Translations under genes and position numbers: made by a program
The notes under the pieces: generated by a model
Told to the model about the DNA's origin: nothing
Seen by the model: only the letters and a program-made list of their open reading frames with translations
The model's database searches: none
Source: Luteirhabdus pelagi
Lineage (GTDB): Bacteria > Bacteroidota > Bacteroidia > Flavobacteriales > Flavobacteriaceae
Assembly (NCBI RefSeq): GCF_016827595.1
Contig: NZ_JAECMS010000002.1
Coordinates: forward strand, 62,001-126,000
DNA length: 64,000 nucleotides
Direction: 5' to 3'
Shown here: positions 208 through 29,872 of the stretch, piece by piece
How positions within the stretch are numbered: position 1 is the first letter of the stretch
How the letters are laid out: every line of letters starts with the position of its first letter

Positions 208-869
208 TGCGACTGTTTCCCACAAAAACACCCTCAATAATAAAACGGCTGTATCCGAAAAGGATATGGTCGTTTTCTCGTTCTACTGAAACCGTATTCC
301 TCACTTTCGATGATGGTCCTATTCCTGAAGTCACTCCTTGGGTACTCGACACATTAGCGGAGTATCATGCGAAAGCGACCTTTTTCTGTATTGGTGAAAA
401 CATCCAAAAGCATCCAGAAGTCTTCAACAGAATTCTAACCGAAGGTCATGCTGTAGGCAATCATACGCAGCATCATGTAAATGGTTGGAAAACCCAAACG
501 CAAACATATCTTCGAGAGGTTGAAAAAGCGGAAACGACAATTTCTAATTTTTCAAATCGAAAATCGAAAATCGAAAATTCCAAAATGCTATTTCGTCCTC
601 CCTACGGTAAGCTTACGTCAGCCCAGGCAAAGCAGCTTCAACAGAAAGCATATACTATTGTAATGTGGGACGTACTCACTTACGATTTCGATACGACGCT
701 TTCACCCGAAAAATGCTTCACCCAAACCAAAAAAGCAATTCGACCGGGTAGTATTGTTATCTTTCACGATAGCCTAAAGGCAGAAAAAAACCTTCGATAT
801 GTGCTACCGAAGGTTTTAGATCTTATTACTTCCAAAGGTTGGAAAACGGAAGGATTATTTAATACTTAG
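207..869 (+). CDS. polysaccharide deacetylase (NodB homology domain)
   Basis: This 220-residue protein is a carbohydrate esterase family 4 type deacetylase, which removes N- or O-acetyl groups from peptidoglycan or other polysaccharides with a divalent metal. Visible motifs are the metal/catalytic motif TFDDGP near residue 31, the metal histidines in GNHTQHH near residue 87, FRPPYG near residue 130 and the late IFHD near residue 188. There is no obvious signal peptide, so it may be cytoplasmic or anchored by its basic N-terminus. The start overlaps the upstream stop by one base. Three perfect 7-nt repeats (AAATCGA, 554-574) lie in frame just before the FRPPYG motif. The 3' end overlaps the convergent next gene by 15 bp. 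Confidence 0.88.
   Translation: MRLFPTKTPSIIKRLYPKRIWSFSRSTETVFLTFDDGPIPEVTPWVLDTLAEYHAKATFFCIGENIQKHPEVFNRILTEGHAVGNHTQHHVNGWKTQTQTYLREVEKAETTISNFSNRKSKIENSKMLFRPPYGKLTSAQAKQLQQKAYTIVMWDVLTYDFDTTLSPEKCFTQTKKAIRPGSIVIFHDSLKAEKNLRYVLPKVLDLITSKGWKTEGLFNT
554..574 (+). repeat. tandem heptanucleotide repeat (AAATCGA x3) inside the deacetylase gene
   Basis: Three perfect head-to-tail copies of the 7-mer AAATCGA, followed by a partial copy (AAATT). They encode part of the linker between the helix after the metal histidines and the FRPPYG motif. Three copies equal seven codons, so gain or loss of one copy would shift the frame. Confidence 0.75.
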
Positions 870-26616: not shown

Positions 26617-27936
26617 TTGAAAATAAGCAAAAATCCTGTAGAGTCCTTTATAAACAAATCTACCGCCGGTAGTTTTATATTATTGCTTTTTACCATAATT
26701 GCCCTGGTCTGGGCGAATTCCCCCTGGCAAGAAAGCTATCACTCCTTCTTCAACGAAACATTCTCCATCGGTTTTTCAGAAACCGATTTTATTATTTCAA
26801 AACCGCTATACCTATGGATTAATGATGGACTAATGACCATCTTTTTCTTTTATGTCGGATTGGAGATAAAACGAGAAATCCTTGATGGCGAACTTACATC
26901 CATGCGAAAAGCAACCATGCCTGTTTTTGCGGCGCTAGGCGGCATAATCGTTCCCATCGCTATATTCTTCATCTTACATGACCAAGAGCGCGGTACGGCC
27001 GGTTGGGGGATTCCTATGGCCACCGATATCGCCTTCTCATTGGGGATTCTTAACTTATTGGGAAAGCGAGTGCCCTTAAGCCTAAAAATCTTCTTAACCG
27101 CCTTCGCCATCATCGATGATATTGGTGCTATTTTGGTTATCGCCTTCTTTTATAGCCACGGCATGCACTTTTTATATCTAGGTATCGCTTTGGCCATTCT
27201 GCTTTTCTTAGGCTTTTTGGCCTATAAAAAATTTCACTCAAAATACTTACTGCTGATCAGCTCCATCGCCATATGGATACTCTTTCTGAAATCAGGCATT
27301 CACCCGACCATCGCCGGCGTACTTATAGCAATGGTGATTCCAGCCACCCGTAGTGTCGATTTGGACAATTTTTTCCAGGAAATACGGAAATCGGTCAATA
27401 TCTTTCAAAAAACAGAGCCTCGAAGGGTTATTCTTTCCGATAAGCAACAAGAAGCAGTAGATCAAATTAATGTAATTACAGATCGCGTACAATCGCCCAT
27501 GCAGCAATTGGAGCACGGACTGAGTGGCTGGGTTACCATTGTTATTATGCCCATCTTTGCCTTGGCAAACGCAGGTATCACAATCAATTTGGATTCGTTG
27601 AGTCAAACACACTTAATTTCACAGATTGCAATTGCCCTTGTGGCAGGAAAAGTAATCGGAATCGCCTCATTTAGCTATTTCGCGTATAAGCTTAAAATTG
27701 CTGATCTGCCTACCGGTATCGGCTTCCGTGAAATTATAGGCGTCGGATTCCTTGGAGGCGTTGGGTTTACCATGTCGCTCTTTATTGCAGAATTGGCCTT
27801 CCGATCCAACGACCTACTCACCTCTTCTAAAATTGGTATTCTAGTCGGAACCATAGTAGCCGGTGTGCTAGGTTATTTCATTCTTAAATATCAACTGAAA
27901 CGAAAGGAACAGCAAAAAGCAGCACGACCAGACTAA
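26617..27936 (+). CDS. nhaA: Na+/H+ antiporter NhaA
   Basis: A 439-residue inner membrane antiporter exchanging sodium for protons, fitting a marine habit. Family marks include WANSPWQESYHSFF near the first helix, YVGLEIKREILDGEL, ATDIAFSLGIL with the first key Asp, AFAIIDDIGAILVIAFFYS with the Asp-Asp pair, and GVGFTMSLFIAELAF late. The start is a TTG at 26617, because the first ATG in frame would lose the first helix. About 40 residues of basic and glutamine-rich loop and tail are added. Ends with a bidirectional terminator. Confidence 0.96.
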   Translation: MKISKNPVESFINKSTAGSFILLLFTIIALVWANSPWQESYHSFFNETFSIGFSETDFIISKPLYLWINDGLMTIFFFYVGLEIKREILDGELTSMRKATMPVFAALGGIIVPIAIFFILHDQERGTAGWGIPMATDIAFSLGILNLLGKRVPLSLKIFLTAFAIIDDIGAILVIAFFYSHGMHFLYLGIALAILLFLGFLAYKKFHSKYLLLISSIAIWILFLKSGIHPTIAGVLIAMVIPATRSVDLDNFFQEIRKSVNIFQKTEPRRVILSDKQQEAVDQINVITDRVQSPMQQLEHGLSGWVTIVIMPIFALANAGITINLDSLSQTHLISQIAIALVAGKVIGIASFSYFAYKLKIADLPTGIGFREIIGVGFLGGVGFTMSLFIAELAFRSNDLLTSSKIGILVGTIVAGVLGYFILKYQLKRKEQQKAARPD

Positions 27937-27941
27937 CAACA

Positions 27942-27969
27942 AAAAACCCATCGAAATCGATGGGTTTTT
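27942..27969. terminator. bidirectional terminator between nhaA and atpC
   Basis: AAAAACCCATCGA (27942-27954) and TCGATGGGTTTTT (27957-27969) form a 13-bp perfect stem with A and T tails that serve both strands. Confidence 0.9.
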
Positions 27970-27995
27970 ACTAACTCTAGAATGGCAATCTCAGC

Positions 27996-28271
27996 TTAGT
28001 CGGCCAATACAATTGCTTTATTGTTGTTCATTTCCAAGGTTCCACTGCTAATTTGCAGCACCCATTTATCGCCTTCTTTCGTGAATTTCTTCTCAAATCC
28101 TTCAGCAATAGTCGGGTTTCCTGAAAACTTCACCTTCCCTTCACCCAATAGCGAAACTATAGGTGCGTGGTTATTCAACATTTGGAATTCGCCTTCCACA
28201 CCGGGAACGGTTACCGAATCTACTTCGCCGCTCACTAAAGATGCTTCTGGGGTTACGATTTCTAAATACAT
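27996..28271 (-). CDS. atpC: F1 ATP synthase epsilon subunit
   Basis: A 91-residue epsilon subunit containing only the N-terminal beta-sandwich (LEIVTPEASLVSGEVDSVTVPGVEGEFQMLNNHAP). The C-terminal two-helix inhibitory domain of most bacterial epsilon subunits is absent, as is common in Bacteroidota. It follows atpD after 77 bp that hold a periodic repeat array. The other F-type ATPase genes are not in this window. Confidence 0.95.
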   Translation of the reverse strand: MYLEIVTPEASLVSGEVDSVTVPGVEGEFQMLNNHAPIVSLLGEGKVKFSGNPTIAEGFEKKFTKEGDKWVLQISSGTLEMNNNKAIVLAD

Positions 28272-28278
28272 ATATACA

Positions 28279-28339
28279 AGTTATGAGTTATGAGTATATG
28301 AGTTACGAGTCACTCTGAACTCCAAACTCCAGACTCTTA
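28279..28339. repeat. heptad-periodic inverted repeat array between atpD and atpC
   Basis: GAGT occurs at 28285, 28292, 28300 and 28307, and its complement ACTC at 28312, 28319, 28326 and 28333. The spacing is 7 nt throughout except one step of 8. The left half includes two perfect AGTTATG copies (28279-28292). Folding gives four GAGT/ACTC pairings separated by small internal loops. Confidence 0.7.
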
Positions 28340-28348
28340 ACTAGTTTT

Positions 28349-29872
<1,524 letters not shown>

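What the first reader, a model, noticed from the sequence alone, without database searches (positions are those of the whole stretch)
28279..28339. Heptad-spaced GAGT/ACTC array between atpD and atpC
Four GAGT words followed by four ACTC words at 7-nt steps make an inverted array with a strict period that neither coding nor a normal hairpin explains. It could be an RNA ladder stem controlling the beta/epsilon ratio, a protein-binding array, or a replication-slippage product that also exists as an inverted copy. A different 7-mer array lies in the deacetylase gene, so 7-nt periodicity may be a genome habit.
Basis: seen in the sequence. Interest (0 to 1): 0.6.

Follow-up and report, generated by a model that had tools for sequence, protein, structure and literature searches.

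The report
Shape-conserved heptad hairpin between ATP-synthase genes
Between the genes for the beta and epsilon parts of ATP synthase, many bacteria of the Flavobacteriaceae carry a short RNA hairpin built from 7-letter repeats, whose position and shape are kept while its letters are swapped wholesale from species to species; it may set how much of each part is made, but that is untested.

Summary
The array is real. On the mRNA strand it is a 23-pair imperfect hairpin filling the 77-nt atpD–atpC spacer (fold z -3.2). GAGT steps are 7, 8, 7 and ACTC steps 7, 7, 7. It is not a single-strain oddity. Of 81 spacers (this one plus 80 fetched, nearly all Flavobacteriaceae), 48 pass both a heptad rule and a fold rule; 17 are short (10-24 nt). 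Among other same-strand junctions with gaps up to 150 nt in four genome samples, 8 of 630 pass. Class-wide, 9 of 73 spacers pass, in the own family and six others. The words differ (GAGTT, GAGAT, GGTTGAT, GCAGT, GCTTAAA, AATTCC and others), with at least 22 word-class changes on an atpD/atpC tree, yet arms fit their own partner far better than foreign ones. Typically 4 nt after the stop codon and 14 nt before the start stay outside the hairpin (here 3 and 4). None of 46 is followed by a U-run in the operon direction. Best reading: an intercistronic stem-loop of the mRNA-decay/stoichiometry kind, favouring beta over epsilon, conserved as shape and supplied by 7-nt repeat turnover. Main rival: neutral arrays tolerated because they fold out of the way. 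Function is inferred; no expression data.

The parts
28349..29854 (-). atpD, ATP synthase F1 beta subunit (501 aa), upstream gene of the pair
   Evidence: Pfam ATP-synt_ab E 7.9e-66
28272..28348 (-). 77-nt atpD-atpC spacer, wholly occupied by the inverted heptad array
28313..28345 (-). 5' arm of the hairpin in mRNA sense (GAGT words)
   Evidence: MFE structure
28310..28312 (-). 3-nt apical loop
   Evidence: MFE structure
28276..28309 (-). 3' arm of the hairpin in mRNA sense (ACTC words); ends 4 nt before the atpC ATG in this fold
   Evidence: MFE structure
27996..28271 (-). atpC, ATP synthase F1 epsilon subunit, 91 aa (beta-sandwich domain only)
   Evidence: Pfam ATP-synt_DE_N E 7.9e-19 over residues 1-91
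27942..27969 (-). terminator-like hairpin after atpC

Best explanation
In the atpD-atpC mRNA the array forms an intercistronic stem-loop that starts a few nt after the atpD stop codon and ends shortly before the atpC start. Shown here by computation: position, predicted fold, heptad period, arm-to-arm fit, polarity, recurrence, replacement of the words, and the absence of a U-run in the operon direction. Inferred: once the downstream mRNA is cut or decays, the stem blocks 3'-to-5' exonucleases and keeps atpD mRNA longer than atpC mRNA, and/or damps atpC translation, favouring beta over epsilon (3:1 in F1, recalled). What is conserved is the shape, not the letters: 7-nt slippage, and perhaps copying from other heptad arrays in the genome, supplies new repeats, and those that fold with the right geometry are kept.
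For: Both rules (best period 7 with lag-7 match at least 0.40; fold z below -2): 48 of 81 spacers against 8 of 630 other same-strand junctions with gaps of up to 150 nt in four genome samples. Looser test: 39 of 64 spacers of 35 nt or more against 7 of 241 flanking noncoding segments of the same 80 loci. In 46 array spacers of 60 nt or more split at the midpoint, own halves pair at -21.3 kcal/mol and swapped halves at -12.0; 0 of 20,000 permutations reach the own mean. Polarity: 5' arm G over C in 43 of 46, 3' arm C over G in 40 of 46. Unpaired ends median 4 nt after the stop and 14 nt before the start, sum 19 (IQR 15-21) against 29 (IQR 15-41) in shuffles; 16 class-wide arrays give 3.5 and 14. 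0 of 46 have a run of four U within 10 nt after the hairpin in the operon direction. Word classes change at least 22 times among 49 array rows. Class-wide, 9 of 73 spacers pass both rules, in 7 families, own included. Window against sister species: of 9 changed pairs in the consensus stem, 6 changed on both sides, 3 on one side, 0 broken. Precedent for intercistronic stem-loops setting operon ratios: PMC8219983 and PMC5927463 (passages).
Against: No expression, decay or probing data. 17 of 81 family spacers and 42 of 73 class-wide spacers are short and carry no array, so it is not required. Own arms are not always the single best partner: with optimised splits the own 3' arm ranks first in 11 of 46, as spacers of one word class can pair with each other. 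Within word classes pairing is kept only moderately: of 63 changed cells, 10 double, 28 single kept, 25 broken; pair-wise shuffles reach 10 doubles in 2.6%; without the window pair 4 doubles, 25 singles and 25 broken remain. The window/sister alignment is uncertain in the middle. Palindromic arrays can be created by template switching without selection. The window's own hairpin leaves only 4 nt before the atpC start, less than the typical 14. Whether other operon junctions are as often occupied across the family was not tested; controls are four genome samples and the atp flanks.
Confidence: 0.48

Rival explanations
1. Neutral, tolerated insertion: heptad arrays arise by slippage and template switching, and at this short junction survive only when they fold into a hairpin that hides the extra length, so that the ribosome still sees the usual short spacing. 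No regulatory role.
For: Nucleotides left outside the hairpin (median 19) match the length of the 17 array-less spacers under 35 nt (median 19, range 10-24). Many array-less species exist. Pairing inside word classes is often broken. Other heptad arrays lie in these genomes.
Against: A tolerance filter alone does not explain why this junction is occupied in 48 of 81 and others in 8 of 630, nor recurrence at the same junction in other families, nor the usual polarity. The match in length fails class-wide to some degree: 16.5 nt outside 16 arrays against 13.5 nt for 42 short spacers.
Confidence: 0.3
2. Sequence-specific protein-binding array (DNA or RNA) between atpD and atpC.
For: Regular spacing of a short word; MacGregor 2015 proposed binding proteins for TAACTGA heptamers in Beggiatoaceae (PMC4679880, sections read).
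Against: Words differ completely between close relatives at the same place: at least 22 changes among 49 rows, 8 inside the Aequorivita clade (19 of its 20 rows counted).
Confidence: 0.05
3. Intrinsic terminator or attenuator between atpD and atpC.
For: Stable hairpin between the genes; in the window it is followed by a T-run on the opposite strand, and 19 of 46 arrays have such a run on the antisense side.
Against: 0 of 46 have a U-run after the hairpin in the operon direction; the terminator scan does not call it on either strand. The antisense runs overlap the atpD stop codon TAA and may be incidental.
Confidence: 0.07
4. Remnant or empty form of a mobile element whose ends are inverted heptad arrays, such as those around IVP (PF05635) genes in this genome.
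For: One IVP gene (C22:378890-379177) has GAGTTA/AACTC arrays on both sides with words like those of the atp array; short inverted repeats are seen by eye near others.
Against: No spacer of the 81 exceeds 112 nt, so none holds an IVP gene; only partial matches of up to 32 nt elsewhere in the genome, no second full copy.
Confidence: 0.06

Closest known systems
Intercistronic stem-loops of differential mRNA decay / selective RNA processing and stabilization (malE-malF, puf; Dar and Sorek PMC5927463; SLOFE PMC8219983, whose abstract lists ATP synthases among its operons)
   Same: Stable hairpin between co-directional genes of one unit, no U-run, first gene needed in excess (recalled for beta over epsilon).
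   Different: As far as the passages I saw tell, those hairpins are ordinary sequence; here they are inverted heptad arrays with wholesale word replacement. Protection of atpD mRNA is not tested here.
Heptamer direct repeats of Beggiatoaceae, Cyanobacteria and Bacteroidetes (TAACTGA; MacGregor 2015, PMC4679880)
   Same: 7-nt unit, intergenic, indels in 7-nt steps, found in Aequorivita and Gramella with other heptamers beside it.
   Different: That paper follows one word, nearly always as direct repeats; the atp junction, the hairpin and the word replacement were not described in the parts I read.
REP/BIME elements (recalled)
   Same: Repeated palindromic intercistronic units that can stabilise upstream mRNA.
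   Different: REPs are copies of one sequence; here sequence differs between species and only geometry recurs.
STRR heptanucleotide repeats of cyanobacteria (recalled)
   Same: Heptanucleotide unit in intergenic DNA.
   Different: Not described, as far as I recall, as conserved hairpins at one operon junction.

Membership tests
Intercistronic decay-barrier / SRPS stem-loop | Stable hairpin between genes of one operon | tested here: met
   fold z -3.2; 54 of 64 longer spacers z below -2. Co-transcription itself is inferred from strand and gap
Intercistronic decay-barrier / SRPS stem-loop | No uridine tract after the hairpin | tested here: met
   0 of 46
Intercistronic decay-barrier / SRPS stem-loop | Upstream gene mRNA more stable or abundant, 3' end at the stem | not testable with these tools
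   no transcriptome data
Heptamer tandem repeats (TAACTGA type) | Intergenic tandem 7-nt units | tested here: met
   lag-7 z 5.2, TRF period 7
Heptamer tandem repeats (TAACTGA type) | The word TAACTGA in direct repeat | tested here: not met
   words are GAGTNNN/ACTCNNN, inverted
Intrinsic terminator | Stem followed by a U-run in the direction of transcription | tested here: not met
Rfam RNA families | Match at gathering score | tested here: not met
   in 27900-28500 only three sub-threshold matches, within 27903-28017, none over the array
REP/BIME (RAYT-linked) | Linked RAYT transposase and conserved palindrome | not tested
   -

The most novel reading that the evidence does not exclude
A regulatory RNA element whose identity is carried by geometry alone: an intercistronic hairpin at a fixed junction and near-fixed distance from stop and start codons, repeatedly rebuilt from interchangeable heptad arrays so that its whole sequence is replaced between close species while its function (beta over epsilon) persists. 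Heptad arrays would then act as a renewable raw material for RNA hairpins in Bacteroidia.
Probability: 0.38. Interest if true: 0.8.

Novelty: new variant of a known kind. Interest (0 to 1): 0.62.

Why it matters
Functional RNAs are usually found by conserved sequence or by position-wise covariation. This one would be missed by both, because the whole sequence is replaced at a time; it shows up only when spacing, period and self-fit are compared at one orthologous junction. If functional, it gives a natural series of dozens of different hairpins at the same place in the same operon, and a direct way to ask how bacteria keep subunit ratios when beta and epsilon share one transcript, and what generates 7-nt repeats in Bacteroidota.

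Tried and rejected
GAGTNNN as a special word: 63 matches in the genome, but the backward-read control pattern gave 64, so that motif alone says nothing; the heptad arrays of this genome use many words.

A full second copy of the atp array in the genome: none, only partial matches of up to 32 nt. A search with the GGTTGAT-type spacer in ten genomes found more arm-like matches in the two genomes that carry this word at atp (24 and 45) than in the other eight (0-15). That hints at a shared pool of words, but those counts include self-matches and repeated matches inside one array, so I do not lean on it.

Stop codons in all three frames as a purpose: 40 of 46 against 65% of shuffles; a mild excess that any 7-nt repeat containing a stop codon would give; not pursued.

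Covariation inside word classes is too weak for a claim. Genome-wide intergenic 7-periodicity: not present. Rfam: nothing over the array. One search chose the split point on own arms, which favours own arms; one search repeats it with a plain midpoint. One search read all class-wide loci as if on one strand; corrected. The first mechanical word assignment put three AATTCC-type spacers and four unclear ones under GAGTT; I reassigned these seven rows by eye, and the minimum stays at 22 changes.

Papers: PMC4679880 abstract and outline plus sections 10 and 23; PMC8219983 and PMC5927463 passages only; the rest as search listings. No description of heptad hairpins at atpD-atpC was seen in the listings of searches, which cover open-licence PMC papers only and list at most 20 papers each.

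Full report
What is there. The window carries atpD (28349-29854, -) and atpC (27996-28271, -), confirmed by Pfam. The 77-nt spacer is filled by the array: GAGT at 28285, 28292, 28300, 28307 and ACTC at 28312, 28319, 28326, 28333. In mRNA sense it folds into one imperfect hairpin of 23 pairs with a 3-nt loop, -21.7 kcal/mol, z -3.2; lag-7 self-match z is 5.2. The chain of eight words was seen in 0 of 200 base-shuffled windows. A terminator-like hairpin follows atpC, the next ORF upstream of atpD is 249 nt away, and an nhaA-type antiporter gene is convergent, so atpD-atpC looks like a two-gene operon (inference).

Is it a genome habit? In 400 kb of this genome and 400 kb of the sister species, noncoding 7-nt clusters number 10 and 12, against 0-3 at each of the lags 4-6 and 8-11. 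Of the 18 lag-7 clusters of this genome, 15 (9 of the 10 noncoding) have a lag-7 cluster within 1 kb of the aligned flank in the sister species; flanks are mostly 92-98% identical. By eye the paired arrays differ by whole 7-nt units or single letters, while the atp array itself has diverged more, 73% mean column identity in a partly uncertain alignment. Intergenic DNA as a whole is not 7-periodic. Arrays are thus a recurrent but local feature.

The orthologous junction. The nearest is Thermobacterium salinum, 96% identical over atpD+atpC. With the window this makes 81 spacers. 17 are 10-24 nt; 64 are 35 nt or longer. Of the 64, 54 have 7 as the best period (range 3-12) and 54 fold with z below -2. 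Mean self-match in spacers of 60 nt or more is 0.52 at lag 7, 0.44 at lag 14 and 0.37 at lag 21, and 0.25-0.31 at the other lags from 2 to 29. With both rules applied to spacers of 35-150 nt, 48 of 81 pass; among other same-strand junctions with gaps of up to 150 nt in samples of four genomes (this one, the sister, two Aequorivita), 8 of 630 pass (counts after removing the atp junctions themselves: 2 of 200, 3 of 198, 2 of 112, 1 of 120). Of the 8, by eye only one (an Aequorivita junction) is a clear inverted heptad array. A Fisher test gives 4e-44, but related species are not independent, so I rely on the contrast rather than on the p-value. In the flanks of the same 80 loci 7 of 241 noncoding segments have a 7-nt array by a looser rule, five of them at the hairpin just after atpC, against 39 of 64 spacers.

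Words change, shape stays. The words fall into classes (GAGTT/GAATT, GAGAT, GAGTA, GGTTGAT, GCAGT, GCTTAAA, AATTCC). On a tree of atpD+atpC DNA the classes need at least 22 changes among 49 array rows and 8 within the Aequorivita clade (19 of 20 rows counted) (4 unclear rows left out; tree 'quick', 22 of 78 inner branches weak; classes assigned by word counts with seven rows reassigned by eye). Well supported neighbours with different arrays include L050/L052 and L047 against L045+L046. Yet the arms fit: split at the midpoint, 46 arrays of 60 nt or more pair with their own second half at -21.3 kcal/mol and with foreign ones at -12.0; 0 of 20,000 permutations reach the own mean, and on average 89% of foreign halves pair less well. 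The own partner is not always the very best (first in 11 of 46, among the first three in 25), since spacers of one word class fit each other. The 5' arm is G-biased in 43 of 46 and the 3' arm C-biased in 40 of 46; L048, L053 and L054 are reversed. This polarity points to the RNA rather than to the DNA duplex (inference).

Window against its sister: GAGTT has become GAATT in the 5' arm and AACTC has become AATTC in the 3' arm (direction not known). Of 9 changed pairs in the consensus stem, 6 changed on both sides, 3 on one side and none broke, but the alignment is uncertain in the middle. L073 has GAGTT in the 5' arm and AATTC in the outer words of the 3' arm, a G-U state between the two. Over all 11 groups 63 cells changed: 10 double, 28 single kept, 25 broken; 2.6% of shuffles reach 10 doubles. 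Without the window pair, 4 doubles, 25 singles and 25 broken remain. Letter-by-letter conservation of pairing is therefore only weakly supported outside the window pair; the stronger evidence is replacement of whole arrays by other arrays that also fold.

Geometry. The hairpins leave a median of 4 nt after the stop codon and 14 nt before the start codon, sum 19 (IQR 15-21), against 9, 9.5 and 29 (IQR 15-41) for shuffles. Array-less spacers under 35 nt have a median of 19 nt (range 10-24). Two readings follow: the hairpin keeps the effective spacing (neutral tolerance), or it is placed as a functional stem. The window's own hairpin has 3 nt and 4 nt outside, so it is tighter than typical. Stems have a median of 21 pairs; the longest unbroken helix has a median of 8.5 and a maximum of 21.

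Beyond the family. atpC was found in 144 of 149 sampled Bacteroidia genomes. I examined 89 of the 143 matches outside the own genome and could measure 73 spacers (two of the short ones with an uncertain start): 42 short, 2 over 150 nt, 29 in between; 12 pass the heptad rule (8 families) and 9 pass both rules (7 families), own family included each time. Sixteen class-wide arrays, four of them with period 8, leave 3.5 and 14 nt outside the hairpin. So arrays recur at this junction in several families, with varied words, though less often than in Flavobacteriaceae. I did not survey other junctions class-wide.

Mechanism. No U-run follows any of 46 hairpins in the operon direction, so termination is unlikely. 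Intercistronic hairpins that protect the upstream cistron from 3'-to-5' decay are established: Dar and Sorek report a stable hairpin at the 3' end in 26 of 34 gene pairs with a stabilised first gene (PMC5927463, passages), and stem-loops in Clostridium operons, ATP synthase included, were used to predict stoichiometry (PMC8219983, passages). F1 contains three beta and one epsilon (recalled), so a stem between these two genes would favour the needed ratio. This is inference; translation damping is an alternative within the same reading. The neutral-tolerance rival stays open at about 0.3.

Closest prior work on the repeats is MacGregor 2015 (PMC4679880; abstract and sections 10 and 23 read): heptamer direct repeats, mainly one word, in Beggiatoaceae, cyanobacteria and five Bacteroidetes including Aequorivita, with indels in 7-nt increments and a suspected regulatory role. 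The hairpin at one orthologous junction with word replacement was not described in those parts, nor seen in the listings of my searches.

Noticed in passing
L028 (own genome C22:377390-380677), L025-L027, L029, L030; L033-L040 in the sister genome: IVP / four-helix-bundle genes (PF05635): one (L028) has GAGTTA/AACTC heptad arrays inverted on its two sides, and short inverted repeats are seen by eye near others, as if the mRNA could close into a stem with the ORF in the loop, like 23S rRNA intervening sequences (recalled). At the L028 site the sister species has a broken copy (L040, one stop inside) with AATTC words instead.
   Followed up: partly
window 529-605: Heptad array AAATCGA inside the polysaccharide deacetylase gene, with an array at the matching place in the sister species.
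   Followed up: partly
window 27996-28271: The epsilon subunit is only 91 aa and matches the beta-sandwich domain alone; no match to a C-terminal helical (inhibitory, recalled) domain.
   Followed up: no
L010, L012, L014, L016, L017, L021: GC-rich palindrome (CCCGCCCGAACG...CGTTCGGTACGGGCGGG) recurring inside heptad-array regions of the own genome; looks like a REP-type element.
   Followed up: no
L054 spacer and +277 downstream (also L043, L050, L051, L079 downstream): The hairpin after atpC in Aequorivita and relatives uses words like AAATCCCAAATTCC, as does the atpD-atpC array of L048/L053/L054: a possible donor for that array.
   Followed up: partly
L173, L174, L185, L204, L212: atpD-atpC spacers with period 8 instead of (or, in L174, as strongly as) 7 in other Bacteroidia families.
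   Followed up: no
L268-L277 (Aequorivita, 200 kb): Sixteen noncoding 7-nt array clusters in 200 kb, one a long direct array of ACTACTG units; denser than in the window's genome sample (10 in 400 kb).
   Followed up: no
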